64,000 nucleotides of DNA from the NCBI GenBank assembly GCA_963971405.1, contig OZ020491.1, positions 8,922,855-8,986,854 on the forward strand, given 5' to 3'. A program made the position numbers and the translations under genes. The DNA is from Psococerastis gibbosa (taxonomy: Eukaryota; Arthropoda; Insecta; Psocodea; Psocidae). This document shows, one piece after another, positions 24,776 through 61,913 of this stretch. Every line of letters begins with the position of its first letter. Position 1 is the stretch's first letter. The notes under the pieces are model-generated. The model was not told where the DNA came from and made no database searches. It saw nothing but the letters and a program-made list of their open reading frames with translations.

Positions 24776-24784
24776 ACTTACCTG
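24776..24784 (-). promoter_or_regulatory. Recursive splice site (ratchet point) 1
   Basis: Read on the minus strand, TTATTTCTTTTTTCAG is followed directly by GTAAGT. An acceptor fused to a consensus donor is the hallmark of recursive splicing in long insect introns: the spliceosome joins here, regenerates a donor, and repeats downstream. A branch-point-like ACTTAAT lies about 20 bases upstream. The flanks show no known repeat. Confidence 0.6.
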
Positions 24785-24799
24785 AAAAAAGAAATAACA

Positions 24800-26747
24800 T
24801 ATTAAGTCATTATGACAATGCCAAGCAAAATGTAATTAACATAGGAAATTTCCTTTTGTAAAGTAGTCGCAGGTTACATTAAAACTGTCAAGTAACATCC
24901 ATATCTGAAAAAGCTACGAATAAAGGGTAGCCTTTCACCATAACAGGTGAAGAAAACTATAATACTAAAAAAAGACAATGGGACATAGCGTAGCTTAATC
25001 GGATTCGATTAAATACCGCACGTAAGATCAGGTTACTAGATTGCAAGACGTACAATCCTCGAATGTTACCCTTAAGCTGTAAAGGAAATCGGGACAAATG
25101 ATACTCAAAAGTTCGGTATCTTATATGTTAAATCGTCTCCAATTCCACCATTTCAATACCGTCTCTAACAATTGTATCGAGTGACTAAGAATGTAACCAT
25201 TAATCTCTTTTCTACACAAAGACTAGAGTATGAGAGCGGATTTAGAGGGTGGGGGTTCGGTATTAATGTATAATTTATTATCATTATAATTTATTAATGT
25301 ATAATAGTTACAATAATTACAATATTAGCATATATATACGCAGTATTACCGTTTTAAATGTGGCTCACACTCTGTACCTTGTAGGACTTGTATCGTAAAA
25401 CCCCACGTGAGCCTCATATGAGAGAACTGGCAAACACTCTCCCCCATTAGTGTTGGCATTCTTTACGTACTATTTATTCCAACAGATGATTAATGGACTA
25501 AAAAATTAAATAGCCATAATACATAATCTCAATTCGCGTAGCCGTAGGGCTGGCAAAGGCGGATGTGAAGAACAATATCAGAGCAAATTACGTTACACAT
25601 TAATTTGCAACGGGCGTCAACCAGAAGAGAGAATTGCATTTGAACCTGTCCGCCACCGAGGTGAGGGAGGAGAAAGTCTCGGCAAATTTATATTTGTCTG
25701 ATATTGACGGGCATACAGTCAAATGCCGCTCACAGATCGAAATACATACTGTATTGCAATTTTATATTACGTTATAGCCAAGTAGGTTATGACCAGGCCT
25801 TACCACTCCTACGGGGGACAACTGTAAAACGTGAAGCCAATGCTCAGTTATACCAATGGGAACACCACACGGGAAGGAACCTGAGAGTGCGGCCGAAGAA
25901 GGAATTCGGAAAACTTGGCCACATTTCCCCCTTAGTTTAACCTTTTCACCCATACTTAGCTTATGGTTAGGCGCAATCTATTAGATTTTATTATCGTTGG
26001 TTGTGCCGGATAAGTTACCATTCGATTAGCCCTAAAAGGCATGTCTAACTGTACATCTTAGCTAAGCGATATTTCTATAATAAAAAGGTATGTATGTCGG
26101 CCAGTACTTTGCACTTCAATTTTTGTAGTATTTTCGCATAATCCTGAATCACATGCAGACCACCTCGGAATTTGGTAATATTGCTAGAAATTAGGATATG
26201 AATGTAGGATCAAGGAACAGCATCGACTTTGAAACAGTACTTAAAAAATTACTAGAATTTCAAAAAAAAATGTTGTTAGGGAAAACACTGAAGTTAACGT
26301 GCTGGGACAGCTTTTTACTCGTCCGTTCCGAAGAATTATATTTACACTCACCCAGCCCGATGCCCCGTACAGAAAAATGGAGCGGGGCGTACATTCACAC
26401 AACACAGACCACAAAACTCGGTAATGCTCATTATTGTCATTAATAGTCCGTGCCGATATATTTTTATTTGCCTTTAGCTCATCGAGATTTGCTCAAGTTA
26501 TTAAGCCTCACACTTGCCGGAACAGTCCACACATGCGGATTAACAACGCAGTATGCTCCAATTACTAAATAAACAAAGCGACAATGACGTTCATGATTCC
26601 AATGAAATAGATGGCACAGGTCACGGAGTAGCATACTGCTGCAAATTCATCAGAACGACGGAACAAAACAAAATTATGATAAAGCACATGCTATTAGTCT
26701 CACATGATTTGCCTTGGCGACTTTGGGAGACAGAGGAAAGTCGTCGT
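24800..26747. other. Unassigned sequence
   Basis: Several short frames (25704-25953 on both strands, 26198-26443) have no recognisable domain. A TA-rich stretch lies at 25255-25330. No element was identified. Confidence 0.35.
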
Positions 26748-26763
26748 CGTTGTAGTAGTAGTA

Positions 26764-26795
<32 letters not shown>

Positions 26796-26846
26796 GATAG
26801 TAGTAGTTGTGGTAGTAGTACAAGTAGTTGTGGTAGCAGTAGTCTT
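26748..26846. repeat. (TAG)n-type trinucleotide repeat
   Basis: About 33 imperfect AGT/TAG units. It yields poly-Ser, poly-Val and poly-Thr frames on both strands, which are artefacts. Confidence 0.95.
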
Positions 26847-26879
26847 CTTCGTTAGTTGCTTCCTTTCACTATTCTCAAA

Positions 26880-27140
26880 AGCCATCCCGCATGGACTGCC
26901 AAGGGGCGTCAAGGTAGATACCTTCAGGATGGCAACCGGTCACGATTACCTACCGAGCTACCTGAGTGGACTTAGCAGGATCCCCCATCTGGCCCCTTCT
27001 GTACATAGGCTGAGGCACATCCCACCACCTGTCCGACAGGAGGGATCTGGACGACGATGAGAACTCCTTCCAGCAACGGTCGAGACTCCTCCGGGCAACG
27101 CGACGTTTGATTTTAGAAATATTACGTTGGATTAGCAGCC
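26880..27140 (+). pseudogene. Non-LTR retrotransposon C-terminal zinc-knuckle region (relic)
   Basis: One frame reads VDTFRMATGHDYLPSYL and another, after a frameshift, reads LSDRRDLDDDENSFQQRS and RLLRATRRLI. In many non-LTR elements an FRLxTGHxxL motif precedes a cysteine-rich knuckle and then a HLLxCP segment. Here the cysteines are lost and at least one frameshift is present. A better-kept relative of this region lies at 54795-55045. Confidence 0.5.
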
Positions 27141-27775
27141 TCAAGTATTATTCTCAACTGAAACCCATTAGGTATTAGCGCGGCCTGCTGAGGAACTTAG
27201 CCCTCTTCGGCTCTTCCATGTCAATGGTGCTGGCCCAGTCGGTTTCTGCAGAGCGTTATTATGGCAGATTGGGAACATGACTCGCATTGGGGCTGCCACT
27301 TCGCCGTCACAGACTTCCAAGAGTCCCCACTGTGATTTCTTCTTCAAACAATCTGCAGTAGAAATCAGCTCCTGCTGCCCCTGTTTGTCAGCCAGGAAAA
27401 TAAACTTGCTTCTTAGTTTCGTTCAATTACAAATCAAGAAGAGAACATACAAGTAGTTGCGTAAGACGTAAACTGTGCGAAATTATCAATCATTCAGTTC
27501 ACAAGTGCAAGCAGCATCAGCAAACATTTGTCTGATGGTCAAAGTAGCAAAGTGTCTTTTTATCGTTCAAGGAAAGCAAGCTTAACGGGAGAGCTAAAGG
27601 TTAAGAAGTGAGAGGTTATTACTTATTCGTTCATATTATCACAGGTCGCAATGGAATTAAAAACGGCTTATCTTTACTTTACACACTCGTATGTCTCAGA
27701 CATTTTCGCCTGCATGCAACTTAATAGCCTTGAATGGTACTGGTACTTATAGACTCAAGACTGTCATTTTTCAGC
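27141..27775. other. Unassigned sequence
   Basis: No gene or element was recognised. Confidence 0.35.
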
Positions 27776-27967
27776 CATGTAGAGTAGTTGAACGAACTCT
27801 GACTTTCACCCGAAAGGTGGTTGGTTCGAGTCCTACACTATAGTTACATTTACTGGCCACGCTTTGGAGGGCATGTGGTGGTCCCGGGTTTTCCTAGTTG
27901 AGTGTAAGAGAGGGCTTTATAGCCCTAAATAGAAAAAAAACGCCATTATTTATTTATTTTATTTATT
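27776..27967 (+). repeat. tRNA-derived SINE, near complete
   Basis: The head has CATGTAGAGTAGTTGAACGA and a B box GGTTGGTTCGAGTCC. The body has GGCCACGCTTTGGAGGGCAT, and the tail has TTCCTAGTTGAGTGTAAGAG, GGGCTTTATAGCCCTA and ATTTATTT. Elements of this type are transcribed by polymerase III and mobilised by a non-LTR retrotransposon. It is the same family as 44949-45146. Confidence 0.85.
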
Positions 27968-28719
27968 GGACAGTCTAAAAAAGTCTGTCCTCCAATTTTA
28001 GATGTTATAGATGTATTGATGAGAGTCCGTGGACGTCTAGGTCGATTGATGTGACAAAGGCTCAAATTATACGCGATGAAATCCATTTTGTTATTAGCGC
28101 AAACATACTTTGCCATGAAATCAATTAAATGTGAAACCCGAAATTTAATGAAACACAAGATCGAGGCCGTGAACTTATGCTGATATTTTTTCATGCTTTT
28201 AATTTGAACCAGTCTAGAGGCTAAGGCCTGATGGCTACCATTGAGAGTCATTCAAAGCCATACAGACTATGTGGTTGTAAGAGTAGTAGTAGTTTGGGAA
28301 AATAGAACTCAGGCGGCAAATTGGTCCCTTAAGTCCTTCCCTTAGTCACCATTCCATGCCAATGGCTTGCCTGAACCCGGCCACATCATGAGGTCCATGA
28401 TTTAACCCGCAGTCATACAGACAATAATAATGATAATGCAAGTAAATATTTCTACCAGGGGCGTCATTTAGGGTCCTCAGTTGTCCACAGCTTTCAGAAA
28501 AAATGTTAATATATTCTGAGGGTATTAGGGCATGCTAAAAGTTCTAACTAAGTAACCAAGTTAAGTCTGTCCTATGGGCCCACACCGTGGCCTGGGACTG
28601 TGTCCAACCATACTACTACTAAGTAACCAAGTGATGACAGCTTAACAAGGAAAGTACTATTAACTGCTCCCGCTCCCTCTCCCTTCAGAGAACAAAATTG
28701 AAAAGAGACTCCAATTACA
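27968..28719. other. Unassigned sequence
   Basis: A 101-codon minus frame at 27946-28251 has no recognised domain. No repeat was identified. Confidence 0.35.
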
Positions 28720-28830
28720 TGGATTTTGACTCTTGAGCAGAAACTGAGTGACAAAAAGCTTTCTATTATTGGGTATCGAACCACACGACTTCTAGAGCAG
28801 CTCAATTGCTCTACTCTAGGTACCCCGCAC
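28720..28830 (-). repeat. tRNA-like SINE head (decayed)
   Basis: On the minus strand TAGAGTAGAGCAATTGAGCT resembles an A box and anticodon arm, and GTGGTTCGATACCC resembles a B box. The T and acceptor stems do not pair, so this is not an active tRNA gene. Confidence 0.5.
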
Positions 28831-28839
28831 AACAATGAT

Positions 28840-31245
28840 AAAGGGGACCTACATTATGAAAACAAAATATCAAAATTTATTAAAAATACACGAATTCAAT
28901 ATTAATGTTACTCACAGAGCAAATTCGTCATCACAGTAGCAGTATCTCTTGAATTGAAGAAAGCATTGCGAGTTGTGCAAAAGGTCTCGAGGTGAAAGGT
29001 CACTCGTCCACATTATTGGAGCCATTTCCTAATACAGCAATAACTTAACGTGGCATACACAGTAGAAGCGCCGTGGAAAAACTCAATGCCAATGGGGTTA
29101 TCACTCAAGGTCATCCTAAGTGCACCAAATATGCCAGGAAACACTATAGTTCATACAAATTACAAACCGAGGAATAATACGCAGTTCTCCGAATAGAAGG
29201 CACGTTTCGGCAGCATTTCGAACACTGCGTAGGCCAAAATTGCGAACGAAGTTAGCCCAGAGTGGACCTTCGACCGCTCTGACAAAGCCTCGCCATCAAG
29301 CTCAATTTTCAGTCCCAGCATGCCAAGCTTCACAGAAAAGCAAACTTGGTGCAGATATTCCTTGAGCTGGGCCACCTTATCCTACACTCGCTGCTTCCGA
29401 GTCGTCATCAGCTTTCGTTCCCCCTATCTTGGGGTGCATGCCCGCCAGCGCTTGGCTCTCAGTCTCAGTTTTATATTATATCTCAGATTGCTACTGCTTA
29501 ACACTAAAATTTAAACGGCCTTAAATTACAGGATTAGAATATGTCGCCGTTCTCTTGAGGTGTGTTCAATACCTGTCGGCGTGTTTTAAAGACCCCCCCC
29601 CCCTCGGAATATCCTACGCCTTTTCGCTTAGCCACTATCGACTGTTCAGAAACTATGATCTCACTTGTTTATCAAAAATCGTTATTGAAAGCTACCTTAA
29701 ATGTTACCCATTATAGAGGCTTCCACGAAAAATTCGTCACTGCAGCAGAGAGTAATCTCGCCGCAATCATCGGGCAACCATTGCGGACGTCCAGATCGTG
29801 CGAGCCATCTCATTTTGCCCACAATATTGGTTTATCGTGACCTCAACAGTGGGGAAGAGCATGACTGAAGCTGTTTACCTGACCCAGACAAATGCATCCG
29901 ACTCCGACTTCTTCATTAACCCGTCATCGTTCTCAAAGAAACAACAATGAACCCGGACCCGCGAATTTTCTCACATATCTACCCACCGACAAAACTAATA
30001 GTTGTAACACATTCAAGACTGTCCACAACGACTTCCAGATCTAATTCCGTTTGGGCTTTTCACACGACGTTGCACCATATATTTGACCTGCAAAGTACAT
30101 GTCAACTGTTCAGCTAATTTCTTCTTCTAATGAGACTGAGCTTGAAGGTACTCAAGTTACCATAAAAACCAGCACTAAACTGTTAGACCTCGGGTGAAGG
30201 TGTGGGTGCAATAATTAGTCCATAAAGGACTCCGCTTACCCACTGTAATCGCACTGCATAACCTCACACATAAAAGCAGCAAAAATGCAATATTGCACAG
30301 CATAAATAATACAAACTTAAAGCGTTACAATGGCGTTGCACCGCGAAAATCCCCACTTGACTCCACTGATGCGGGAAAACCTTCCAAATCTAACAGAAAC
30401 TCCAATAAAGCCACCAGCTCTAAAACTAACAATTCAACATAAGAATGCAATCCTGACGATTACACCTACTTAATTGCATTCAGTGAAGCGGAGCAAGAAT
30501 AAGAAAGGTCTTTTCGCCATTCGCCGACTATGGTCCTATCGATTGTATCCGTACAGCCAGGACTATTTATCACCGCTATTCAGAACTACCACTCTACCCA
30601 AAAATAGTATAAAAGGGACTTTGTGGAGAGATTTGCACGGAAAGTCTTCTGTGCTAGACAATTTTGACAAAACACGGCCACCGTTCCACTGTCTATATGA
30701 GAAGTTCATCTATTTGAATTACGCATTGCCTCAAAAGTAATGTCAATATTTTATTTTACCATATTTAACCATACGTCTCATCTCGATCTGCTTGCGAGGG
30801 AATAGAAGAGAGGGTGAGGAAACAAATCTGCCTTCACTCTTCACGCCAAATGCCTCCGAGGAGCCGGAGGATTAGGACATGCTTGTAAGTGTTTTCCTTG
30901 GCTTGAGTTCGAAAAACAATCCGCACTGCTACCGAGACTGTTATAAAGCTTAAGGGGTCGGCGGCTGGAGAACACGCCAATGAAGAAGGCCGCTCTATGT
31001 GTCTAGGGGAGGGGATGAGATATCTTTGTAAAAACTGTCTTCTTCATGAGTCAGAGTGCTACAGTTCGGGGTGAGCTTCGGCAACTCGCGCCGCCTCTCT
31101 CCAAGCATCCCTTTGTAAAAACTGGAAATAAAAATCTTCAGCTAAACCTGTGTCAATAATATTTTTCGCCAACTTTATGGACAATTCGACCAAAACGCTG
31201 AAGGACCAAAAAGCCCCCTCCTACACCCAACAAGAAAGGCTCTTA
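28840..31245. other. Unassigned sequence with C11 tract
   Basis: An 11-base C tract lies at 29593-29603. Frames at 29160-29375 (-), 29562-29840 (+) and 30474-30740 (+) lack recognised domains or splice context. Nothing identified. Confidence 0.35.
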
Positions 31246-31335
31246 TTTACATGTCCTCCGAAGCATGGCCAGAAAATGTAGGAAGTAGAGAACTCGAACC
31301 AACAACCTTTCGAGTGAAAATCAGAGATAGATGTA
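31246..31335 (-). repeat. SINE head fragment
   Basis: On the minus strand it carries TTTCACTCGAAAGGTTGTTG, GTTCGAGTTC (B box) and CATTTTCTGGCCATGCTTCG, matching the heads at 44949 and 35258. The tail is missing. Confidence 0.8.
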
Positions 31336-31542
31336 ATGGGTAAGCCGACTCGACGTGAGCTGAAATAGGGCAGGGAATATTATGCAAGGATTAAGGAACC
31401 CGCCTTAAAAAGTTGTCAAGTCACTAATCTCATGTGTCCAGCACCTATAAGGTGTGGTCCTAGCCAGGCTGTTGCATGGCACAACAATTGTCCCGAACAG
31501 GTTAGTGAACCTTTTAAAGAGCCCAATTCACTACAGATCCGG

Positions 31543-31865
31543 TCCAGCGAGACAAGCCAAATTGTAATGGGGACCATTGAACACCCGTCAGATGGTGGAT
31601 TAAAGAAGAAGACGAAAATCCATTTATTTGGGTATCTCGCTGTTTTGGACAGTTAATGGACAGGGGACCCTAGGTATCACTGACTGGCCAATCCAGTGAG
31701 ATAAGCCAAATTGTAATGTCAAGGGGATCATTGAAAATCCCTTAGAGGGAAAATGATGGATTGAGGTTATGAAAGGCGAAAATCCATTCTTTGGGGCATG
31801 GAATTGGATTGGAAAGTCCATGAAAAGGGGACCCAGGGCGTTACTGCCTGGCCAATCTAGCAATA
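31543..31865 (+). repeat. Imperfect tandem duplication, unit about 150-165 bp
   Basis: Two adjacent copies start at 31543 and 31692 with TCCAGYGAGAYAAGCCAAAT. Each contains GAAAATCCATT-TTTGGG, a GGACAGGGGACCC-like block and CTGGCCAATC. The copies are diverged, so the duplication is old. Confidence 0.75.
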
Positions 31866-32440
31866 TAAATTAATTAGCAATTAAAAGCCTTGAAGTACGT
31901 ATATTATCTGCAACAACAGCCACGTATACGCTACTAAAATCGAAGAAACACAACGTTTCATGTCTGTTTATTGCTTGTCACACTGTAACCTCGTAAATAT
32001 TGGAGAAAAATATTAATTTAGTATTATTAAACGCATTAAACTTGTTAATTGTAAATTAATATGCAAAATGCAATTATAAATATACACATAATTATAAGGA
32101 ACCCATTAAAAAGAGCATTAAAAAAGCCGTTAACAGGTCATAAATTATAAGCTGATTTTTAAACCCGTAATATTGAACGATTTGTTTCATATTACAACAT
32201 AACTATAATAAATAAAACATGATTTTCACTAGTATATGAGTGCGTGTCATACTGTATATAGCCATGAGGCAGTAAAAATTTGCCTACCTGATAATTTAAA
32301 TATTTTAGTATAGTATGGTTGTGTATTTCCATATTAAATATCACAAAGCCCGGTTTCACCCTAATCCAAAGCATTGTCAATACATGGGTCATGATTGTCA
32401 GAAACTCCATTATCCCTGTTCTGGCATGATTTTGGGCGTA
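31866..32440. other. Unassigned AT-rich sequence
   Basis: No element or gene was recognised apart from the extension of the minus frame discussed at 32500. Confidence 0.35.
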
Positions 32441-32760
32441 ATATAGCAGTGGTGTACCCCGGGTCCCCGGGAGTGTGATAATCGTCCTCCCAACTTCACC
32501 TGCAGCTCGCTTCCGCATTCTAACAGCACACGACTAACTCCAAGTGCACCTACACAGAATCGGCCCGGCGGCAGACAATGTCATCTTTCCACTCTGTCAG
32601 ACAGTGAGGATGGAGGGAGGGAGCCCACTCGTCTAATAACTGTCCCCAGCTGCAAATCAACAGCATTACCGGCAGACACAAGGAGGCTCGGCGCCGGACT
32701 GAACAGCCTTGGACGGGCGCTGGATTCAGTAAACAATAGTGATGTTTATCCAAACATATA
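32441..32760 (-). other. GC-rich block, candidate alternative first exon
   Basis: This block is clearly richer in G+C than its surroundings. On the minus strand there is an initiator-like TTCAGTCC near 32697-32704, an upstream in-frame stop, an ATG at 32518, and after six codons a donor-like CAG/GTGAAGT (exon edge 32500). Without splicing, the ATG opens a 108-codon frame (to 32192) with RGTPLLYYAQNH, which faintly recalls an ankyrin repeat but lacks the rest. The block lies on the same strand as the three ratchet points. No gene can be named. Confidence 0.3.
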
Positions 32761-32766
32761 TTTTTG

Positions 32767-32957
32767 GCTTTCCAATTTATACGTAGTATAAGGAAATTTT
32801 CGATTCCGAGATTTCAACGAATTTAAACGTTTTACGAGGCCCCAGGAACCCAAAAAAGTGGTTTTGTGTCTGTCTGTAGTTCTGTCTGTTCATCGATTTT
32901 GATGAAATTTGGCATGTAGGTACACAAAACTCATACCTCGAGACAATTTTTTTTATT
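32767..32957 (-). mobile_element. Family M element, 3' fragment
   Basis: On the minus strand it ends TACGTATAAATTGGAAAGC and contains CATCGATTTCC-like, TGTCTGTC and GGTTCCTGGGGCCTCG-type blocks of family M. The left two-thirds are missing. Confidence 0.85.
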
Positions 32958-33029
32958 TACCGTTGTGGCTTTAGCTTGCTGCGGATCAACAAGTCCGTGA
33001 ATAAGAACCTTATCCCGTTCGGACCTCCC

Positions 33030-33310
33030 ATGAAACCCAATAGTTAACAGAAACTAAAAATTCCAAACATGTCAACACTGTCCGTATCCCTCTGGGTGTT
33101 CCACAGACCACAACTAAATCCACCAACAGGCCATTAATCCTAGGCCGAATCCGGCTCAAAATGGCCATTCGACTTATGGCCGGCTGTCCACTCGGCTGCG
33201 GGGTGTCTTTGGCGGCGCGCGGTCGAGCCAAGTGCCAATTAATTGGCTCGGAGCTCCCGTTGGACGCGGCACGCAGTGTCTTGTGTGTAGCCAGGCTCCC
33301 GGCTATATGA
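33030..33310. other. GC- and CpG-rich segment
   Basis: The core GGCGGCGCGCGGTCGAGCC (about 33210-33228) stands out in an AT-rich window. A 73-codon minus frame covers part of it but has no recognised domain. It may be promoter-like, but no TATA box or initiator is convincing. Confidence 0.3.
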
Positions 33311-33581
33311 AGCCTTCATTGTTTTATAACAGTCCATTTAATACGCCATTGTTGTTATCCGCCTTCTAAGGTAACTATCTGTAGTTAATAACAGTACTAT
33401 TATTCATTCGATGATGTGTAGAGCGAAGAGTTAACATTTTTTAATGAGTTCACAAGTATACTGTTTATGGGCCGCAAACTATTCACACAATTGACGGTGG
33501 TAGCGACTAACGAAGGTGTTCAAATAGAACCATGGGTTTGTAAATCACAGCTAGTCTTCGACTTAAGATTATTGCTAGTAA

Positions 33582-33721
33582 GGCGGCGTTTCCATTGACC
33601 TCGTATTGCAGAATGCACATGACGTTGACGAGGTAGCAGACATCATTAATAAGTCTTTAATGTCTGCTACCACGTCAACGTCGTGTGCATTCTGCAATAC
33701 GAGGTCAATGGAAACGCCGCC
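33582..33721. mobile_element. Near-perfect palindromic MITE (140 bp)
   Basis: The inverted arms are about 62 bp with only about two differences. They start GGCGGCGTTTCCATTGACC and run through GAGGTAGCAGACAT. TAA flanks both sides (33579-33581, 33722-33724). The few differences between the arms suggest a young insertion. It is the uninterrupted form of the outer element at 692-1077. Confidence 0.9.
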
Positions 33722-33783
33722 TAAAGTCAGAACAAGTAGAGTATTGTGGATCAGTTGCGTCTTATTCTTCCAACAATTTTAAA

Positions 33784-33850
33784 CATGTCGAGTAGTAGTG
33801 ATACGGACTCCCTACAGTTGTTGGTTCGAGTCCCACAATTCCTATAGTAT
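33784..33850 (+). repeat. SINE head fragment
   Basis: CATGTCGAGTAGTAGTGATA, GGACTCC and the B box TTGTTGGTTCGAGTCC match the heads at 35258 and 44949. The rest is missing. Confidence 0.7.
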
Positions 33851-46762: not shown

Positions 46763-46770
46763 ACGCGCAT

Positions 46771-51640: not shown

Positions 51641-51641
51641 G

Positions 51642-52775: not shown

Positions 52776-52939
52776 AATAATTATTAAATGCCAATAACAG
52801 AAATAAATCGAACCAATACCGAAGGCATTTACAATAAAAACATAGCAAATAACAATTTACAACACAGAAATATTCAAAATTAAAAGTAATTACGTAAGCA
52901 TTAATAGGCAATCGTCAATTTAAAAAACCCCGTAAACAA

Positions 52940-53395
52940 ATTTTAAACAGAGGTAGGCTGCAAAACGTGTTCGTTGATTGTTTTTAAAATTCTAGACAGT
53001 GGGGCCTTGGATAGTGAATCAGCCACAGAGTTCTTTATCTTGTGTTCCTCGCATTGACTCTGAGCTGAACCCTTTCAAGTATAGTGGGGGCATTTAGCAT
53101 ACTGTTTATTAACTTGTGGAAGAATATATACAGTCCGCAGACACCCTCCTATTCCTGAGCGAGCTCATCTCAAACTCAGCAAGAAGTTGGGAGGTTCTGA
53201 TCGGATGATTGGCGTAGTGGGGATAGATCCCGTGCCGCCTGAAATGGAGATAGCGCAGAAAGCGTTTTTGAACCTTCTCAATCGAAATTGACAGGGATTC
53301 AGCCTCCGGTCGCCACACAACGGATGCATACTCAAGTCTAGATCTAACAAGTGCGTTATAAAGGAGCTTGTGCGTTGATGAATTTGAGAAATGGT
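52940..53395 (-). pseudogene. Non-LTR reverse transcriptase C-terminal domain (minus strand)
   Basis: On the minus strand a 157-codon frame (53582-53109) contains HKLLYNALVRSRLEYASVVW, EKVQKRFLRYLHFRRHGIYP and SSLRNRRVSADC, then stop. Sequence beyond the stop still resembles ORF2 (INSMLNAPTILERVQLRVNA). The KxLYxALVRSxLEYAxxxW block follows the thumb of Jockey-type reverse transcriptases. The first ~60 codons of the frame belong to another element on the other strand. The catalytic YxDD core is missing. Confidence 0.85.
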
Positions 53396-53399
53396 AAGA

Positions 53400-53600
53400 C
53401 ATCCGAATGACAAAACTAAGAATCCAAGGGATGATGGAAAGACTGAGGGCACCCGGCAGAAGAACATCCTTTTTGAAAAACCGGTGGCAGTGGTTTGCAG
53501 GAGCACGACTTCCTTTTTCCGAACAGAAGTCTCCATGGTCCAAATTGTCATGATGACCGCCAATATACAAAAGAAGAGACATTAAAATAAGAAGAAGCTG
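53400..53600 (+). pseudogene. Non-LTR retrotransposon ORF2 end, 16567 family
   Basis: A plus frame reads GMMERLRAPGRRTSFLKNRW and KSPWSKL, with stops, then an AAGAAGAAG end. RAPGRRxxxWLKNL is the family motif. It lies head-to-head against the minus-strand relic ending at about 53395. Confidence 0.7.
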
Positions 53601-53878
53601 TCAAAAATTCAAAAGTTCGAAAGGATTACAAGCAGTCATTCCATGCAAATGATGTTGATCGAAATACCTGGGCTCATTAGATAACATTCAAATGGGTTAT
53701 GAAAACACCTCCAATGAAAACAAAAACTTGATCTATAAATTTCATGTCACCAAAATGTCGGTCGCGAAGACTTGACTAATTTAGCGACATTTATATTGCC
53801 ATCGTCCTTGCCAAAAGTTGGAGATCGGAAACAAGCAGTCTCGAGGCAAGGTCAACCCACTCATAAAAAGACAAAACG
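53601..53878. other. Unassigned sequence
   Basis: No gene or repeat was recognised. Confidence 0.3.
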
Positions 53879-53930
53879 AAAATGTAGGAAGTGTGTGATT
53901 CGAACCAACAACCTTTCCAGTGAAACCCTA
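53879..53930 (-). repeat. SINE head fragment
   Basis: On the minus strand GGAAAGGTTGTTGGTTCGAA and CACACTTCCTACATTTTC match the SINE head and B box. Confidence 0.75.
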
Positions 53931-54794
53931 CATATCGTGACGTATCTTCTTCTTGAGTTACAATCTATGGAATGGTTTACAGCGAATGTTATAGTCTTCT
54001 TCTCCACTCTTGTCAGTTTTGTGCGGTCGTGACGTATAATGCAGATTAGTGTAAGAAAATGGCCCAACTACGCTGCTAATAAAGACGATATTCATTGTTA
54101 TTATCAAGTCCATAAAAAATTAAAAAATATATTCTCCATATTCTCACCTTACAGTGAAATCGGAAGCAAGAATACAAAAGATATAATGGTCATGCATCGT
54201 ATCCCTTCCCTTGAATGACAAAAAAATCTGCATAATTGTGAGGGCACACATGGAGATAATAAAAATAGCAATGGCTGCTAAGTCATTAAAATCAGCCAGA
54301 AGCAGCAATTAGTTTTGAATCATTTAGTTCGAAAAGTAGATTAATATGGGAGTTAATGCTCACCATTATCCATTACGACAGACCGTGTCCAAGTAGCGGT
54401 TTAAGTAGAAACCTCACGTTTACACAGCAATCTCATGGTGAATTACGAGACAAGCAAAACACCATCGTACGGCATTATTACTTTTATACCACTGCCAGTG
54501 AGAAGACCTCACGCTGGAAAATCCGCAAACTACTTCGTAATACCGGCGATTCACATAAAAGGCGTACGTCCATTAAGACCCCACAGGACACCCCCTCTAT
54601 CAATTTTCTGAGCAAAATCCAATTTCATCGGGAATATTGATAGTTGAGCAATAAATTACGTCACATCCCTCAGAACAGCCTGACAAACCCTTGACTCTAA
54701 GTGACTGTAAGAGGCATACCAAAGAATTCTTTCAGGGTAAGTGCGGGACAGCTCACAGGACCGACGTGGGAAACACTAGTGCAGAAGTAAGACA
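53931..54794. other. Unassigned sequence
   Basis: A 94-codon plus frame at 54356-54640 has no recognised domain. Confidence 0.35.
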
Positions 54795-55066
54795 GGCCGC
54801 CAAATAACCTACCCAGATACAAGTCAGTGGCGGAATTTAGGTTAACTACGGGTCAAGGCTACCTTCAAAAACATCTTCACCGTACAGGTGTAGCAGCGGA
54901 GCCTTTCTGCCCTTTATGCGACACCCGGGAAGAGATGGACGGAAAACACCTTAAGACGTGCCCGGCTCTCGTCAATAACAGAGGTTCACCTGATTATGTG
55001 TTGTATTGGGCTGCAAGAAAGCTGATGCCTAATGCTATGGTGTAATTAAAAAAAAAAAAAAAAACT
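54795..55066 (+). pseudogene. Non-LTR retrotransposon C-terminal zinc knuckle and poly-A tail
   Basis: The frame reads AEFRLTTGQGYLQKHLHRTG, then EPFCPLCDTREEMDGKHLKT and CPALVN, ending with a stop at 55045 and a ~17-base A run. The CPLC...HLxxCPAL arrangement is the CCHC knuckle after the reverse transcriptase and RNase H parts of ORF2. All four ligands are visible. The intact 3' end with poly-A suggests a target-primed insertion truncated at its 5' end. Confidence 0.9.
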
Positions 55067-55224
55067 CTCTCAGAAGAAAATATCCCTCCACATATTTATA
55101 TAGATTATAGAGCATACGATTCCGTCGGTAACTGAGCAACACTGACTCACCCGTCATTAGCATAGCTTGTGGAAGGGCAGAATTTCCTGTCGGAAATATT
55201 AACAAACCGCAACTGGCCCCTGGC
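55067..55224. other. Unassigned sequence
   Basis: Nothing recognised. Confidence 0.3.
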
Positions 55225-55489
55225 AGATTAGCGAAGGAACGACCAGATCCGAGATGAGTTGGAAACTGCTGAAATCACCCTCCAGCACAGGAAAAAACGC
55301 CTGTTATGGCATGGGCATGTCCAAAGGCAAGGGGAGGCCCAACTACTGAAAAGAGTTTCGGAGATTGTAGTCCTAGGGAACAGGAGAAGAGGAAAACCAA
55401 AGATGACGCTGCCAAGAACGATCCACGCAAATTTGGACAAACTCACACTACCACCGACCCATTGTAGGGGCCAAATCGCGGAACAAGTG
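55225..55489 (+). pseudogene. Non-LTR retrotransposon ORF2 C-terminus
   Basis: The frame contains RKKRLLWHGHVQRQGEAQLL and NRRRGKPKMTLPRTIHANLD. This is the RxxRLxWxGHVxRM...RRGRPKxxW ORF2 end. Upstream codons RRNDQIRDEL fit the RRNEIIRxxL that precedes it. It stops where a family M copy begins. Confidence 0.85.
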
Positions 55490-56280
55490 AAAGAACCGGT
55501 CCGAGTTCCAAATTATTAGATAGAGAAAATTAGTAATTTTATGGCAAATATTTTTCCTATGGTTAAATTTCCGATATCTCGGGGGGGGGGGGGGGTAAAT
55601 TCTAGATAGGTCAGACCAACACATTACCACACACCAATACTGGCAGGGCAAGCAATGCATTTGAGCGCGAATTTTCTATCATTTTTTTTTCAAAAAATAA
55701 TTTTTTGGGCAAAACCAAATATTTTTTTGGGAAAGCAACCTATCCGGTTTCGTTACTCAATTTAACACCTAAAACATGCTTGAAGGTAGAAATCATCGAT
55801 AGAAAGGTTTCGCATTTTTTAGTCATTTTTTCATTAAAATTTAGTTATTTTTATTTTTTTACCCCCAGAAGCAAACTATCAAGGGGCAAGCGACCCCCCG
55901 CATTTTGTCAACATTAATAACGACTACAATCTACGAGAATTTAAAAGAAATCGTTGGAGCCGTTTTTGAGAAATAATTGTTTTAGACGTTTTTTTGGAGT
56001 TTTTTGAAAATAAAACCCCCCCAAATTGAGTTAGCCCAAAAAAAAAAAAATGGTCCCGAGGTATGATTTTTGTGAACCTACATGCCAAATTTCACTCAAA
56101 TCCACTGAGTAGTTTGCCCGGAAATCGACGAACAGACAGACCGACCGACAGACAGACATTTTGTAAAAACCACTTTTTTGGGTTCCTGGGACCTCAAAAC
56201 GTGTAAATCCGTTGAAATCTCGGAATCGAAAATTTCGACCATCACAAAGCTTTCCTTATACTACGTATAAATTGGAAAGC
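55490..56280 (+). mobile_element. Family M element, near complete (791 bp)
   Basis: It has the AAAGAACCGGTCCGAGTTCC left end (with part of the TGCTTTCC repeat deleted), a G15 tract at 55581-55595 and the complete right end TACTACGTATAAATTGGAAAGC. Confidence 0.9.
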
Positions 56281-56395
56281 AATTAACTAGACCACCAAAC
56301 CATTTGAACGTTCTGCATTCTACTAGTCTGATGGCCGTAGACAATTTAGAGTATGACAAGGTTGTTGATGAGTGAGTGAGTGAATAAGTGAGTGT

Positions 56396-56725
56396 GTGTG
56401 TATGAGAGAGAAAGAGAGACGTGCCCATAGAAATGACGAGCTCAACGCGACATACCGAGAACCTACGATAGTAGCCGAAATCAAGAGAGCCCCCATCAGG
56501 TGGCTAGGGCACGTGGAACGAATGCCAGACAGTAGGGCTACAAGAGCAGCCTTATACAAGGTGCGCCAAGGGAGAAGACGAGTGGGACGACCACGGAGGC
56601 GATGGCTGGACGACGTCGAGGTGGATCTGGCGACCCTTGGCGTCGATGACTGGCGAAGGAGAGCGCAGACCGCGATGAGGCAGAGCAGGCCAAGGCCCTT
56701 CACGGGCCGTAGCGCCAAGGAGTAA
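56396..56725 (+). pseudogene. Non-LTR retrotransposon ORF2 C-terminus, long open relic
   Basis: A 109-codon frame reads NDELNATYREPTIVAEIKRA, IRWLGHVERMPDSRATRAAL and VGRPRRRWLDDVEVDLATLG, then WRRRAQ and stop. It is the cleanest copy of the C-terminal signature in the window and has no internal stop over the matching part. The catalytic domain is absent. It is not expected to be functional. Confidence 0.9.
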
Positions 56726-57237
56726 CTAAGTTGTTGATGTACGGCCTCACTACGTTATCAACCAGACGAGAACTGAAGATGACAGTTCTTGCCAAAAGCG
56801 CATTAGTGGGTTTCTTGTTTGTTAATTAATTAATTAATATGATTACACATAATATATTAATATATATATATATGTAATAATATATAATATAAATAATAAC
56901 ATTATTAGTTACTTTATTAACGTTTATTTGGGTTTTACTAACTCAAGGTATTATAACAAGTTTTAATAAAACACTATAATATTTCGTTTGTTTGCTCATG
57001 ATCATTAATTACTTAATGTCAAGTTATCCTGTCGTACCGCTACTAACTATTATTCTTAAATTGTGATTTCAAATGTTAACCTACCTGGCCAATATCAAAT
57101 AGATGGGTGGTGTGGACTTTTTTTTAATCAAAATGTAGAGGAACACATTTTCTAATGAATGCGACTAATCGCTCTCCTATATGTCCTGCGTAATTTGACT
57201 TTGTAAACGTTCTTCCCCACCGGCTTCCTTTTAAACA
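56726..57237. other. Unassigned AT-rich sequence
   Basis: TA-rich simple repeats lie at 56853-56900. No gene. Confidence 0.4.
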
Positions 57238-57255
57238 CCCCCCCCCCCCCCCCCC
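57238..57255. repeat. C18 tract
   Basis: Eighteen uninterrupted C, not in an element with recognisable ends. Confidence 0.95.
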
Positions 57256-58404
57256 GAAGGAAGAACTAACCTTACTGGGGGTCTCAAGGTGAACCAAAAC
57301 TGCCATCAAATGACGTGCACAGATGCAGACTTGGCACACGACAGCGGGCCACACAAATTAGCAAAAGTTAATGTCATAGGAAGGACAGGAGCAGCAGCAA
57401 TACACACAACTGGCAAAAACACAACAGAAAACAATGGCAGAGGCACTGACCAACCACCAGTCAATCGGCACCCGGCACTGAGCCGACAAAAAATAACGCA
57501 ACACTTGCGAAATGCTCGTGACGTCTCGCCGACTGCTGACAAATGCCACAATGCCAAATTGCTACACCTTCACCGAAGAATAAAAAAAGAAATGGCATAT
57601 GCTTTTTGTGTCTCCACTCACACTTTTCCCGGAGGTAACCACCAAAACTTCTCAAATTGCCCTCGCTATTTCATTTAACCAATTTTCCTTACCCCCCAGC
57701 TGCTACAAATATCCAGTAAAAAATTAAAAGAGCCAAATATTTACCATTATCAGTTCTGCTGACGGAAGACCATCCAAATCTATGCCGCGCAATATAACGA
57801 GGATTTCTAATAGCCTACTAAAATGGCAAAACTGGCCTAGTATCGTTATTTCCTAATTGAATTAGCGTTCCATTAACATAGGCTAAATTAATAAACAATT
57901 CGGTTTTATTGGCTGAAATTGCATTTTTATACCAAAAACATTGTAACAGCTAGAAGGTATCGGGTATTGCACAACAGGACAATATACTGTATTTCAATGC
58001 TATCCGGAAACGTGACCAAAATTCCTATTCAAAATCCACTAATTCTATTAATACCATGGAGCCATTGGAAGAAGAACACAGTACTTGAAGCACTTCTCCC
58101 TCGCATTAAAGTGAAGTTAATTTATTTTTTTATTAATTAATGACAAAATCGTTTTCTTTGTCTTTTTTATAGCTCATTCGGAAGGTTCATGATTCTAGGG
58201 AAATCCTAGCTCAATCAATTCCTCAGAATTGCAGAATAAACAAGTTCGCGATTGGAATTATTGCAATCACGACGCAAATTTCGTTCTTTAACCCCATATG
58301 AAATGCGTACGCATTCAATAAACATTGAAATTTTGTTTCATTGGGTAGGTGAATACCATTCAATAATTCAAAATTGAGAAACATTCATTATTTCAACGAG
58401 CTTA
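57256..58404. other. Unassigned sequence with a 129-codon frame
   Basis: A plus frame at 57289-57678 (129 codons) overlaps minus frames of 83, 64 and 63 codons. None has a recognised domain, signal peptide or repeat, and the amino-acid usage (many His, Thr, Asn) looks non-genic. Confidence 0.4.
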
Positions 58405-58790
58405 GGCGCACATTCCTCCGACCGGCTAGGGCTATTTACAAAAACAGTGACGTGGTAGCAGACATTCAAGACTTAGGCGGGGTTTCCACCGACCTCGCAT
58501 TGCAATGCATTGCATTGAAATGTTTATTTCCTCTATCCCATAGTTAAAATTTATCAATGATCATACAGTAAAATCACAAACAAACAAACTGAAATTAAAA
58601 AATGGCGTCATGGGATATGTTAAGTACAAACATTTTAATAAATTTCTATAAAAAGAAAAATTCTAATTTCCGTCAATGTCATTTGCATTTTGGAATGCGA
58701 GGTCGGTGGAAACGCCACCTAATTCTTGAATGTCTGCTACCACGTCACTGTTTTTGTAATTAGCCCTAGCCGGTCGGTGGAATCGGCGCC
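58405..58790. mobile_element. Outer palindromic MITE carrying a nested MITE
   Basis: The outer ends GGCGCACATTCCTCCGACC and the inverse ending AATCGGCGCC are flanked by TTA on both sides (58402-58404, 58791-58793). The arms continue through CCGGCTAGGGCT and GTGACGTGGTAGCAGACATT. The inner element occupies 58476-58719. Confidence 0.85.
58476..58719. mobile_element. Inner MITE nested in 58405-58790
   Basis: This 244-bp element has ends GGCGGGGTTTCCACCGACC and the inverse ending AACGCCACC, with the same core as 762, 7098 and 9698. It sits at the same loop position as in the 9627 copy. Confidence 0.85.
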
Positions 58791-58973
58791 TTAGCCAAAC
58801 GATAATAAAATAGAACAGATAGCGCGGCAAACCATAATTACCATATTACCAATGGCAGTGAAACGCAGGGGGAATGAGAAAGGAAGTGTTTCCATATTGC
58901 AGGGTTCCAACATAAAAAAGAAAATTGTGGCAAATGAAAAACAAATGAACAATTCAACAGCAATCCTGGTGCT

Positions 58974-59446
58974 TTGGGATTAGGCGCTTATTCCACCGTG
59001 AACTATTGACGTCGGTGGAATAAGCGCCTTAACGTAACACCAGGGTTTATTTTTTAATGCCGCATTAGCTCAAACACTGGGAATAGGATTAAATTAATTC
59101 AATTGTTTAAACAAATGAGTGCAAAATGCGGGGGAAATTTAAATTGATCCTAGGCTATATTTTTGGTAGGTTTTCAATTTTTTTCTCCCTTAGACACATT
59201 AATTACTATTCTTAATACATTCCAAAATTCTACCAGTACATTTTAATGTTTATAAGTATTTCCTTCAATTATAAAACAATGCAACCATTCTCTTGTATTC
59301 CAATAATTTATTAATTTGAATTTCCCACGTATTTTTCACTCTTTCATTTAAAACAATTGAATCAAGAGCTAAGACTTAGGGGTTTATTTTAACACTAATG
59401 CTAATCTGGTATTAAAAAATAAACCCCGGTGTTATGTTAATCCCAA
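58974..59446. mobile_element. Inverted-repeat element whose left arm holds a 46-bp micro-MITE
   Basis: The right arm 59397-59446 (ATTAAAAAATAAACCCCGGT, TATGTTAATCCCAAA) is the inverse of the left arm 58974-59066 once the 46-bp insertion is ignored. The centre is unique and AT-rich. Confidence 0.75.
58983..59028. mobile_element. 46-bp micro-MITE
   Basis: Perfect 16-bp inverted ends (GGCGCTTATTCCACCG) enclose only 14 bases. TTA flanks both sides (58980-58982, 59029-59031). The opposite arm of the host element at about 59433-59442 shows the uninserted sequence. The ends match the outer ends of the 58405 element. Confidence 0.9.
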
Positions 59447-59471
59447 ATCGTCATGAACACAATATGTGACG

Positions 59472-59570
59472 AAGCAGTAGAATCCGGGATGATGGGCCGT
59501 GGTCGGTCTGAAAGCGTACTAACAAACGTTTCGTCAACATCTGCGTTCGACATCATCAGTGGAACTGGGT
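59472..59570. repeat. Repeat related to the 20452 hairpin element
   Basis: CAGTAGAATCCGGGATGATG and GGCCGTGGTCGGTCTGAAAG match the inner part of 20452-20535 in reverse orientation. The following GTTTCGTCAACATCTGCGTT is a phrase common in insect repeats. Confidence 0.65.
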
Positions 59571-60014
59571 AGACTGTATCTCGGAATCTTCGTAATTATG
59601 TTGAACACAATAAATTCAAACGCATGGCGCGAGACTTGAGATGGAGAAAAACGTTTTACGCATGTTTTAGCATTATCTATAAACGGAGGCCATGTCAACC
59701 AAACCAACTGCACGCCAGATAAGCTGGCCCTCAAACCAAATCCCGAGATAAGGAGTTTTTGCGACTTACGTAACAAAGGACCCCATTAAGTATCACTGAA
59801 ATCAACACAGTGTTGCAGTCCATTCAAGTGTCACCCAAATCGCAAGTACCCATCACATGCAGTTCATTAAAAGAGGCCACTTATCTGCCAGACACAATCG
59901 AAAAGGCATGCTTGATGACAATCAGCGGAATTCATGAAAATAAGCATTTGCTTCAACAAGAAAAGGTAGAAAATAGATAAAAGGATAACCTATGTTCTTC
60001 TTGCCTCCATTTCG
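59571..60014. other. Unassigned sequence
   Basis: No gene or element was recognised. Confidence 0.3.
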
Positions 60015-60148
60015 GTGAGAAGAGCAAAATGGATGGGTCACCTTATCAGACAGGAAGGACTCTTAAGCACCATAATAGAAGGCACAATTGAAGGCACCAA
60101 TGCAAGAGGGCGACCAAGGAAGGCGTACGCAGAAGACCTCAAGAAAGT
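60015..60148 (+). pseudogene. Non-LTR retrotransposon ORF2 C-terminus, cut by a family M fragment
   Basis: The frame reads RRAKWMGHLIRQEGLLSTII, EGTNARGRPRKAYAEDLKK and then stops matching exactly where the family M fragment begins. Confidence 0.85.
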
Positions 60149-60276
60149 CCCCCCCCCCCGTCGTGATATCCGAAATGCAACCATAGGAAAATTATTTACC
60201 ATGAAATTAATCATTTTCTCTCGCTACCAATTGATAAATTGGAAAGCATGTCCGAGTAAACTCGGACCGGTTCTTT
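60149..60276 (-). mobile_element. Family M element, 5' fragment
   Basis: On the minus strand it begins AAAGAACCGGTCCGAGTTTA and TGCTTTCCAATTTATC and ends in its G11 tract. The remainder is missing, so the break is at the homopolymer. Confidence 0.85.
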
Positions 60277-60281
60277 GTAAT

Positions 60282-60375
60282 GTTTCCGTATGCATTTTTG
60301 GCCACTGGCTCGATGTCAACCTACACCGGCTGCAAGTGGTAATGGTCAAGCTGAGACAAGCTTACCATTGACGCA
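60282..60375. repeat. Fragment shared with 38165-38232
   Basis: GTCAACCTACACCGGCTGCA and AATGGTCAAGCTGAGACAAG, followed by CTTACCATTGACGCAATGAA, match the other copy with scattered differences. The parent element is unknown. Confidence 0.5.
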
Positions 60376-61225
60376 ATGAAACAGGCGAATGCATGACTTA
60401 ATCAAGTACAGATACGAGTCACCCACCGAAGTATGTTAGTTTCTGTTTAAGACAAGTCCCTTTCCTAAAATACAGAACCACTTTTTACTCATCCGCCATG
60501 CGTTGTAATACGATGAAACTTCAGTCCTTTTGTTATTAATTGAGAGACGGGATATTTGAGCGCGCCAAAAACATTTATTAAATCCTTGGGCCACCTGCTT
60601 AGTTTTTTAATTCAAATTTGTGGTCATGGGATGCGTGGCGAGTAGCCCCAGAAATAAAAAAAAATATATTTTTTTGGCGTATCTGAATGTCTCATCTCTC
60701 CCATATAGAACTCTCGATGAAACAATGAGACGATGCGCAGTGATACTAACCAAGACTTAACAAACTGTGGTGGGTGCAGTCGTAAGTAGCATACCACAAC
60801 ACATGTTCTATAACTATCTACAGTTCTATATAGGAGAAATGGGACATTCGAGCACGGCAAAAATATATTTTGAACCCTCCGGTCCCCTGGTACGTTATTT
60901 CAATGGCTGACCACACAAAACGTGGCATAAAAAAAGCCCGGCATCTCTCTTCCAACTTATATTTTATCGACGAAATATTTAATTATGCAGACACGATAAT
61001 GCCCTTCCTATGGCCGGCGACCTTGGTAACTCACGCGTGTGTACAATATTATTTGCGCAAGACGTTACTTTTAGGGGAGATAAGCCAAAAAAACTAGTAA
61101 GAATGCGTAGGGGAACACAGGTAAAATTGAGATAAGTACCCGCATTATAACGCAAAGTACAACCTTGTGATTATTATCGTATTTTGTTTATAAATACCTC
61201 TACCACCCCACCCCATGATGTTGTG
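60376..61225. other. Unassigned sequence
   Basis: Short frames occur at 60624-60860 (-) and 60870-61097 (+). No domain was recognised. Confidence 0.35.
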
Positions 61226-61233
61226 TTGGTTCC

Positions 61234-61856
61234 TAGAGGTGGGGCGTTACTTCTGTCACTGATTTATCACCGTGACTACGATGGTCACTACAACCACCCG
61301 CTCCTACCCAAAAATAATACAGGTGATTTGAGTCACTGTCACCGATTTAGGCTATATTTTAAATAGCTTTGTTTCTAATACTCTGATAGTCGCATGCAAG
61401 AGCAAGTAACTCGCTCAGGTTTAGCCTATGCACTCGGCAGTCTTAAGCGAAATTCCCCCAAATTCTTTCCGATCGTCTCACGTAACCTAAACATAAGGTA
61501 TGCCCGAGGCTGTCACCGCGACTGCTCCATAACTGCCTAGCTTTTAGTTTATATATATATATAATATCTTTATTACTACTTCTTACATTTCTTAGCATAA
61601 CTAAACAAAAGAATAACCGACTTTAATTGTTAAGCGAAACGAATAAGTCTATGTAACTTGTATAAATCACTGTCAAGTAAGAGAAGTGACAGTGACTTTT
61701 GATTACTCATACCAAGATGTACCAAGATTACTTAGATAGCAGGATCAAAAGCAGTCACTCCAGTGACAGAAATCACCAGTATTTGTATCAGTGACTGTCG
61801 AGTCACTGTCACCGGTCACTGTTGCACCTGGAAATATCTGTCACGCCCCACCTCTA
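61234..61856. mobile_element. hAT-type non-autonomous element (623 bp)
   Basis: The ends TAGAGGTGGGGCGTTAC and GTCACGCCCCACCTCTA are inverted repeats, flanked by TTGGTTCC (61226-61233) and GTGGTTCC (61857-61864), a 7-of-8 match. The subterminal regions are full of GTCACTG/CAGTGAC motifs in both orientations, as in hAT transposase-binding regions. No transposase coding remains. Confidence 0.9.
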
Positions 61857-61904
61857 GTGGTTCCGGGTCTTCTTGAACATTAAGAAGGCTACTAGGATGT
61901 AAGA

Positions 61905-61913
61905 ACTTACCTG
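61905..61913 (-). promoter_or_regulatory. Recursive splice site (ratchet point) 3
   Basis: On the minus strand TTTTCTTTCTTTACAG is followed directly by GTAAGT. A branch-point-like CTTTAAT lies about 30 bases upstream. It lies 41 bp outside the hAT duplication at 61857-61864, in sequence not matching any repeat in the window. Confidence 0.6.

What the first reader, a model, noticed from the sequence alone, without database searches (positions are those of the whole stretch)
24776..61913. Three recursive-splice (ratchet-point) motifs on the minus strand imply a giant host intron
At 61905-61913, 41560-41568 and 24776-24784 the minus strand has a polypyrimidine tract, CAG and GTAAGT with no base between. 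Each has a branch-point-like sequence upstream; the one at 41.56 kb is the consensus TACTAAT at ideal spacing. CAGGTAAGT is expected about 0.25 times per strand in 64 kb of random sequence. Three on one strand, all with pyrimidine tracts, and none of equal quality on the other is hard to get by chance. Their flanks do not match the repeats that fill the rest of the window. Stepwise removal of long introns at such zero-length exons is established in Drosophila (for example Ubx). The inference here is a minus-strand gene with an intron exceeding about 37 kb. The gene is unknown.
Basis: partly seen in the sequence, partly recalled or inferred. Interest (0 to 1): 0.88.

Follow-up and report, generated by a model that had tools for sequence, protein, structure and literature searches.

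The report
Stepwise-splicing sites in giant AKAP1 intron
In an unnamed animal, probably an arthropod, what looks like the gene for the mitochondrial anchor protein AKAP1 seems to carry an intron of more than 100,000 bases that is cut out in stages at built-in relay points, as is known for fruit flies, so this is a well-supported new example of a known process.

Summary
CAGGTAAGT occurs at 61905, 41560 and 24776 on the minus strand, each behind a pyrimidine tract, and not on the window's plus strand. A fourth such site lies outside the window (window 107135). By a combined acceptor+donor score these four are the best of both strands of a 171-kb interval.

Its first coding exon starts about 320 bases left of the window, same strand, with a strong acceptor and an in-frame stop before the ATG; the intron is therefore in the 5'UTR. 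I found no other clear host gene between it and a Fer2-like bHLH gene 171 kb upstream. Strand-composition skew marks one minus-strand unit, C19:8901655-9065055 (0 of 2000 permutations).

Genome-wide, 91 relaxed sites give 7 same-strand and 0 opposite pairs within 100 kb (null mean 1.01); 3 of the 7 are this locus.

Recursive splicing is the best explanation; no RNA or cross-species test was possible. RP-site enrichment in mosquito, bee and beetle large introns is already published (PMC2773006). Verdict: confirmed; new member of a known kind.

The parts
1..64000 (-). Interior of the 5'UTR intron of an AKAP1-like gene; the whole window lies inside it. The downstream acceptor ends at C19:8922536 (window -318) and the first coding exon starts at C19:8922535 (window -319). 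The upstream end is beyond window 107140, probably near 142200.
   Evidence: and (acceptor, UTR stop, ATG; coding exons; no other clear host exon; strand-skew segment)
61905..61913 (-). Ratchet point 2 in transcription order: CAG (61913-61911) directly followed by GTAAGT (61910-61905)
   Evidence: 21.5 bits, the highest of the 171-kb interval
61914..61933 (-). Pyrimidine tract of ratchet point 2 (17 of 20 pyrimidines)
41560..41568 (-). Ratchet point 3: CAG (41568-41566) directly followed by GTAAGT (41565-41560)
   Evidence: 20.4 bits
41569..41588 (-). Pyrimidine tract of ratchet point 3 (15 of 20); branch-point-like TACTAAT begins just upstream, last A of TACTAA 20 bases before the end of CAG
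24776..24784 (-). Ratchet point 4: CAG (24784-24782) directly followed by GTAAGT (24781-24776)
   Evidence: 20.8 bits
24785..24804 (-). Pyrimidine tract of ratchet point 4 (15 of 20), with a TTAAT branch-point-like sequence 20 bases before the end of CAG
41716..41788 (-). tRNA-Arg (anticodon TCG) gene nested in the intron, same strand, 147 bases upstream of ratchet point 3; not part of the splicing signal
   Evidence: Rfam tRNA 71.6 bits; only one copy in the 324 kb and eight loci searched

Best explanation
The three motifs, with a fourth at C19:9029989 (window 107135), are ratchet points of a recursively spliced 5'UTR intron of an AKAP1-like gene on the minus strand. Transcription starts upstream, probably near C19:9.065 Mb. 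The 5'UTR exon is first spliced to ratchet point 1: the acceptor CAG is used, and the GTAAGT directly behind it rebuilds a donor at the exon end, so no exon sequence is added. The step repeats at window 61905, 41560 and 24776. The last rebuilt donor is spliced to the acceptor at C19:8922536, 44 bases before the AKAP1 start codon. The intron is thus removed in pieces of about 35 (inferred start), 45.2, 20.3, 16.8 and 25.1 kb. Shown: the motifs, their strand bias, the host exon with its acceptor, no other clear host gene found in between, and the skew. Inferred: the stepwise splicing, the order of steps and the position of exon 1.
For: Motifs as stated; fourth site. Top four of both strands of the 171-kb interval, 20.4-21.5 bits against 16.1 for the next minus site and 15.7 for the best plus site. 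With pyrimidine tract: 4 on the minus strand of the interval against a mean of 0.056 and a maximum of 2 for 89 anagrams, and 0 on the plus strand.
Host gene: acceptor TTTTCTCTTTGTTGCAG, 44-base UTR with in-frame TAA, ATG; KH_1 1e-9 and TUDOR 3.5e-15 in downstream same-strand exons; AG/GT at each of the 10 exon edges printed.
Minus-strand T>A and G>C skew over C19:8901655-9065055, 0 of 2000 block permutations as strong, with the Polinton-like element removed or kept.
Genome-wide: 39 strict sites against 2 for the reversed pattern; 91 relaxed against 13 reversed and 34 for one anagram pattern; 7 same-strand and 0 opposite-strand pairs within 100 kb, null mean 1.01, 1 of 20000 simulations as many; three same-strand sites within 37.1 kb anywhere in 12 of 20000 simulations. 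Without this locus, 4 same-strand pairs remain, reached in 310 of 20000 simulations.
Literature: recursive sites favour long introns and first introns in flies (PMC6110457).
Against: There is no RNA evidence and no relative for a conservation test. Exon 1 was not located. Donors for the cryptic exons expected behind ratchet points (PMC8605326) are not clearly present: the best donors 20-150 bases downstream are matched by 20%, 6%, 52% and 37% of random minus-strand positions. What I take for the Hox cluster (C2:32.41-34.15 Mb, minus) holds none of the 91 relaxed sites, so the textbook Ubx case gave no positive control. Segments of 17-45 kb exceed the typical 9-15 kb of flies. At 300 kb the genome-wide pairs are 12 same and 7 opposite, so many relaxed sites are isolated or chance. 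The solved-structure search put the Tudor part nearest to TDRKH, and no AKAP1 chain was among its 11 hits, so the gene name rests on architecture. One frame at C19:8993356-8993700 scores like a weak coding exon and is unresolved.
Confidence: 0.84

Rival explanations
1. The sites are ratchet points, but of a different minus-strand transcript (for example a long non-coding RNA or an unrecognised gene), and the AKAP1-like gene uses its own nearby promoter.
For: Exon 1 was not found. One unresolved weak coding frame lies at C19:8993356-8993700. Several reasonable minus-strand donors lie between 9030 and 9094 kb.
Against: The AKAP1-like first coding exon carries a strong acceptor 44 bases before its ATG, so it needs an upstream exon on the same strand. 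The skew segment is continuous from about 9.065 Mb through the AKAP1 exons to 8.902 Mb. The Fer2-like gene upstream ends with its own stop codon at about C19:9093.8 kb.
Confidence: 0.1
2. Chance: strong composite splice motifs that are not used.
For: The bare 9-mer is only moderately unlikely in one window (Poisson P about 1e-3), and the motif was picked after reading. In 264 kb scanned for it, other CAGGTRAGT or TAGGTRAGT matches occur without pyrimidine tracts.
Against: All four have pyrimidine tracts; 89 anagram controls average 0.056 in the interval. Order-3 Markov sequence gives 0.1 sites of 18 bits or more against 4 seen. Three same-strand sites in 37.1 kb anywhere in the genome occur in 12 of 20000 simulations.
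Confidence: 0.04
3. The motifs are starts of ordinary short 5'UTR exons (or exons with an alternative donor): the acceptor halves are used, but a donor downstream is used instead of GTAAGT, giving included UTR exons.
For: Ratchet points in flies come with cryptic exons that can be included (PMC8605326), and within a 5'UTR inclusion breaks no reading frame. The 61905 site has a fair donor (GAGGTGGGG) 56 bases behind the junction.
Against: GTAAGT directly at the junction is the consensus donor at all four sites, stronger than any donor within 250 bases downstream by the same matrix; three of the four have no notable downstream donor.
Confidence: 0.08

Closest known systems
Recursive splicing at ratchet points (RP-sites, zero-nucleotide exons) of Drosophila long introns (Ubx, kuz, Bx, Ten-m)
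   Same: Y-tract, CAG, GTAAGT with no base between; several per long intron; sense strand only; first intron; fairly even spacing (minimum segment larger than in 97% of random placements when the inferred start is used, 95% without it). Consensus (y)n-n-cag|gtaagt as given in PMC2773006.
   Different: Another organism and another gene; segments of 17-45 kb against typically 9-15 kb; use not shown by RNA; cryptic-exon donors not evident.
Computed RP-site enrichment in large introns of mosquito, honey bee, beetle and sea urchin (PMC2773006)
   Same: Same kind of signal by the same kind of scan. Published densities per 100 kb of large intron: fly 2.196, mosquito 1.029, beetle 0.807, bee 0.484, against 0-0.122 on the complementary strands. 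Here 4 sites in about 142 kb, 0 of equal score on the other strand.
   Different: There a genome-wide average without naming single genes (in the sections seen); here one gene anatomy is worked out, with host exon, gene neighbours and skew.
AKAP1 (D-AKAP1; MDI in Drosophila)
   Same: Mitochondrial-anchor-like N-terminus, then a KH and a Tudor domain at the C-terminus, as described for AKAP1 in passages of PMC7072574.
   Different: I found no record of recursive splicing for it: the search for 'recursive splicing' with 'Akap1' gave 3 papers, seen as a listing only and on other subjects by title and abstract start; 'Akap' and 'spoon' do not occur in the main text of PMC6110457.

Membership tests
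Recursive-splicing ratchet point | Acceptor (pyrimidine tract + YAG) directly abutting a donor (GTRAGT), no base between | tested here: met
   three sites in the window and a fourth outside it
Recursive-splicing ratchet point | Lies inside a long intron, on the sense strand | tested here: met
   downstream acceptor and coding exons on the same strand; at least 107 kb; skew. The upstream exon was not found, so the intron is bounded on one side only.
Recursive-splicing ratchet point | Excess on the sense strand over the complementary strand | tested here: met
   4 against 0 with pyrimidine tract in the 171-kb interval
Recursive-splicing ratchet point | Branch-point sequence at a normal distance upstream | tested here: met
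   TACTAAT at 20 bases for 41560; TAAT-type sequences at 20-26 bases for the other two window sites and at 22 for the fourth. TAAT-type matches are common in A+T-rich DNA, so only TACTAAT is telling.
Recursive-splicing ratchet point | Cryptic exon with its own donor behind the site | tested here: inconclusive
   best donors 20-150 bases downstream are matched by 20%, 6%, 52% and 37% of random positions
Recursive-splicing ratchet point | Splice intermediates: exon-to-site junction reads, lariats, saw-tooth read density | not testable with these tools
   no RNA data on hand
Recursive-splicing ratchet point | Conservation of the site in relatives | not testable with these tools
   the genome has no relatives in the search
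AKAP1 | N-terminal mitochondrial outer-membrane anchor | tested here: inconclusive
   hydrophobic stretch followed by RKKR at residues 1-32 after the ATG, read by eye; no targeting predictor was run
AKAP1 | One KH domain followed by a Tudor domain, after a long region without KH | tested here: met
   KH_1 1e-9 and TUDOR 3.5e-15; no domain above cut-off in the 395-residue first coding frame
AKAP1 | Closer to AKAP1 than to TDRKH | tested here: inconclusive
The two KH domains that I recall for TDRKH were not found.
AKAP1 | Binding helix for the regulatory subunit of protein kinase A | not tested
   no motif model was run

The most novel reading that the evidence does not exclude
The zero-length exons sit in a 5'UTR intron, where using the downstream cryptic donor instead would break no reading frame but would add leader sequence and upstream start codons. 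They could work as a regulated switch on the translation of AKAP1, itself an organiser of translation at mitochondria, and not only as stepping stones for a long intron.
Probability: 0.07. Interest if true: 0.65.

Novelty: new member of a known kind. Interest (0 to 1): 0.42.

Why it matters
Recursive splicing has been shown by RNA chiefly in Drosophila and in a few vertebrate genes; for other insects the evidence that I saw is computed motif enrichment (PMC2773006). This locus gives a named, testable case in another animal: four sites, a known host acceptor, predicted segment ends to the base, and a predicted start region. One nascent or total RNA data set would settle it. It also shows that strand skew and ratchet points together can outline a giant 5'UTR intron that gene annotation based on coding sequence would miss.

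Tried and rejected
Fer2-like gene as host: the bHLH exons at C19:9096.1 and 9094.6 kb end in a donor, so the ratchet points could have been in its last intron. Its last exon was found only about 0.4 kb further (C19:9093.9 kb), followed by a stop codon, so the gene ends 64 kb before ratchet point 1.

Repeat-borne motifs: rejected for the four sites. By contrast, the best plus-strand site of the interval (C19:9005480, 15.7 bits) and its minus twin (9019582) fall in the long inverted repeats of a Polinton-like element.

Cryptic-exon donors behind the sites: looked for, not significant. Hox cluster as positive control: no relaxed site there. Exon 1: several minus-strand donors, no way to choose; no 1-kb stretch passed the GC/CpG filter that I set for 9030-9094 kb.

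Not completed: a purine-tract control (RRRRRRRNCAGGTAAGT) and a TAG variant (did not complete), the repeat check of the frame at C19:8993356, species identification, and the homologous-protein search.
Full report
What was checked. The window is C19:8922855-8986854 of an unnamed 409-Mb genome in 68 contigs. CAGGTAAGT lies on the minus strand at 61905-61913, 41560-41568 and 24776-24784, and nowhere on the plus strand of the window. Pyrimidines make up 17, 15 and 15 of the 20 bases before each. Expected counts per strand are 0.16-0.27. Given the tract, 3 were seen against a mean of 0.034 for 89 anagrams.

A wider look. I read 324 kb of contig C19 around and including the window. In the 171 kb between the AKAP1-like first coding exon (C19:8922560) and the end of a Fer2-like gene (C19:9093800) there are four minus-strand CAGGTAAGT, all with pyrimidine tracts. 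The fourth is at C19:9029989 (window 107135). The plus strand has one CAGGTAAGT there (C19:9092195), without a tract. One more minus-strand copy without a tract lies beyond, at C19:9106091. A weight-matrix scan with recalled frequencies ranks the four first (20.4-21.5 bits); the next are 16.1 (minus) and 15.7 (plus). Order-3 Markov sequence of the same length gives on average 0.1 sites of 18 bits or more (20 simulations), against 4.

The host gene. On the minus strand just left of the window lies TTTTCTCTTTGTTGCAG, then a 44-base leader with an in-frame TAA, then an ATG opening a long frame (MSPSATVSRPVWALSLPVAAILLSFLWFRKKR...). In the same orientation and order follow exons with KH_1 (1e-9) and TUDOR (3.5e-15). 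Each of the 10 exon edges that I printed has AG or GT at a fitting place, and the last frame ends in TGA; edges were chosen by eye and frames across junctions were not tested. This is the AKAP1 layout as described in passages of PMC7072574. Against the name: in solved structures the Tudor part is nearest to TDRKH and no AKAP1 chain appears among 11 hits. TDRKH as I recall it has two KH domains; only one was found here, and the first coding frame has none. So the intron above this exon is a 5'UTR intron.

Neighbours. Upstream on the minus strand a bHLH gene (HLH 9.1e-20) with the ending LTARLSWINWENLGV..., which I recall as typical of Fer2, has its stop codon at about C19:9093.8 kb. Beyond it are RpL32 (plus), HSP10 (minus; Cpn10 1.4e-16) and HSP60 (plus). 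A codon score trained on 1534 codons of these genes and of AKAP1 itself (so partly circular) found no other strong minus-strand host exon in the interval. The best was 14.5 at C19:8993356-8993700, with an opposite frame scoring 13.7; Pfam gave only a sub-threshold DoxX_2 match (E 0.006, cut-off not reached) for it. It remains unresolved. Most other high scorers looked to me like transposable-element remnants.

Strand skew. With self-repeats masked (31% of bases), the minus strand has T>A and G>C through the interval, and the sign changes at about C19:9.065 Mb and 8.902 Mb. The best segment is C19:8901655-9065055; 0 of 2000 permutations of 2-kb blocks reach it, whether the Polinton-like element is dropped or kept. 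The plus-strand HSP60 bin has the opposite sign. That transcribed strands carry such skews is recalled knowledge. I read this as the outline of one transcription unit of about 163 kb, with exon 1 near 9.065 Mb. Exon 1 itself was not found.

Genome-wide. Y10NCAGGTAAGT: 39 sites against 2 for the reversed pattern. It includes two of the three window sites; the third has an A at the tenth pyrimidine. Y7NCAGGTAAGT: 91 against 13, including all three window sites; the fourth site has an A in the tract and is not in this list. The anagram Y7NCAGTGAAGT: 34. Within 100 kb the 91 sites form 7 same-strand and 0 opposite pairs; uniform placement gives a mean of 1.01 same-strand pairs and 7 or more in 1 of 20000 runs. 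Three of the seven are this locus, three a plus-strand cluster at C20:2.33-2.41 Mb and one is on C1. Without this locus the 4 left are reached in 310 of 20000 runs. At 300 kb the pairs are 12 same and 7 opposite. The 34 control sites form no pair within 100 kb. For the strict set the pairs within 100 kb are 5 same and 0 opposite, mean 0.18. The null ignores gene density. What I take for the Hox cluster (C2:32.41-34.15 Mb; up to 98% identity to the homeodomain query) contains none of the 91 sites.

Anatomy. Segments between junctions are 45,230, 20,345, 16,784 and 25,100 bases, plus about 35,060 if the skew boundary is the start. The smallest segment is larger than in 97% of random placements with the inferred start and 95% without it. 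Branch-point-like sequences lie 20-26 bases before the end of CAG; TACTAAT at 41560 is the clear one. Downstream cryptic donors are not significant.

Mechanism. The best reading is recursive splicing as in flies. PMC6110457 (passages, and two of three parts of the results section) reports that 63% of fly introns over 40 kb have a high-confidence recursive site, that sites favour first introns and are spaced into chunks, and that segments are mostly removed in 5' to 3' order. PMC8605326 (passages) describes the cryptic exon behind ratchet points and the competition between its donor and the rebuilt donor. PMC2773006 (passages and section 6) reports RP-site enrichment in large introns of fly, mosquito, bee, beetle and sea urchin. 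The paper that reported zero-nucleotide splicing genome-wide in Drosophila (Nature 2015, recalled) is not held.

Standing. The kind is known; the gene, the size and the four-site layout are new to me. The search for 'recursive splicing' with 'Akap1' returned 3 papers, seen as a listing only and on other subjects. That it is an arthropod is my impression from the protein sequences and transposable elements, not a test.

Noticed in passing
window 41716-41788 (-): A well-scoring tRNA-Arg(TCG) gene inside the intron, on the sense strand, 147 bases upstream of a ratchet point.
   Followed up: partly
C19:9004889-9020169 (window about 82035-97315), loci L020-L022: Polinton-like (Maverick) element inside the same intron, with inverted ends of about 1.6 kb that are 98.6% identical and several long open frames, so probably a recent insertion. 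Observed only.
   Followed up: partly
window 33578-33725 and 13259-13359: Near-perfect palindromes that match Rfam microRNA models on both strands below the gathering score; probably palindromic transposable-element copies, not microRNAs.
   Followed up: no
window 14145-15317: Tandem array with units of 122 and 139 bases, 92-95% matches.
   Followed up: no
window 53112-53600 (-): Fragment that looks like the end of a non-LTR retroelement reverse transcriptase; a similar, longer open copy is at C19:9104998-9106941 (+).
   Followed up: no
window 46660-46715: Run of 56 A on the plus strand, perhaps the tail of a retroposed copy.
   Followed up: no
G000:C20:2334666, 2360456, 2408142 (+): A second same-strand cluster of three ratchet-point motifs within 74 kb; the host gene was not identified. 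A homeobox match lies at C20:2552984 (+).
   Followed up: partly
C19:9119.3-9128.6 kb (loci L032, L033): HSP10 (minus) and HSP60 (plus) lie head to head, about 1.5 kb apart between the frames found, as in many animals (recalled).
   Followed up: no
C19:8993356-8993700 (window 70502-70846, -): Weak coding-like frame inside the intron with an equally long open frame on the other strand; sub-threshold DoxX_2 match.
   Followed up: partly
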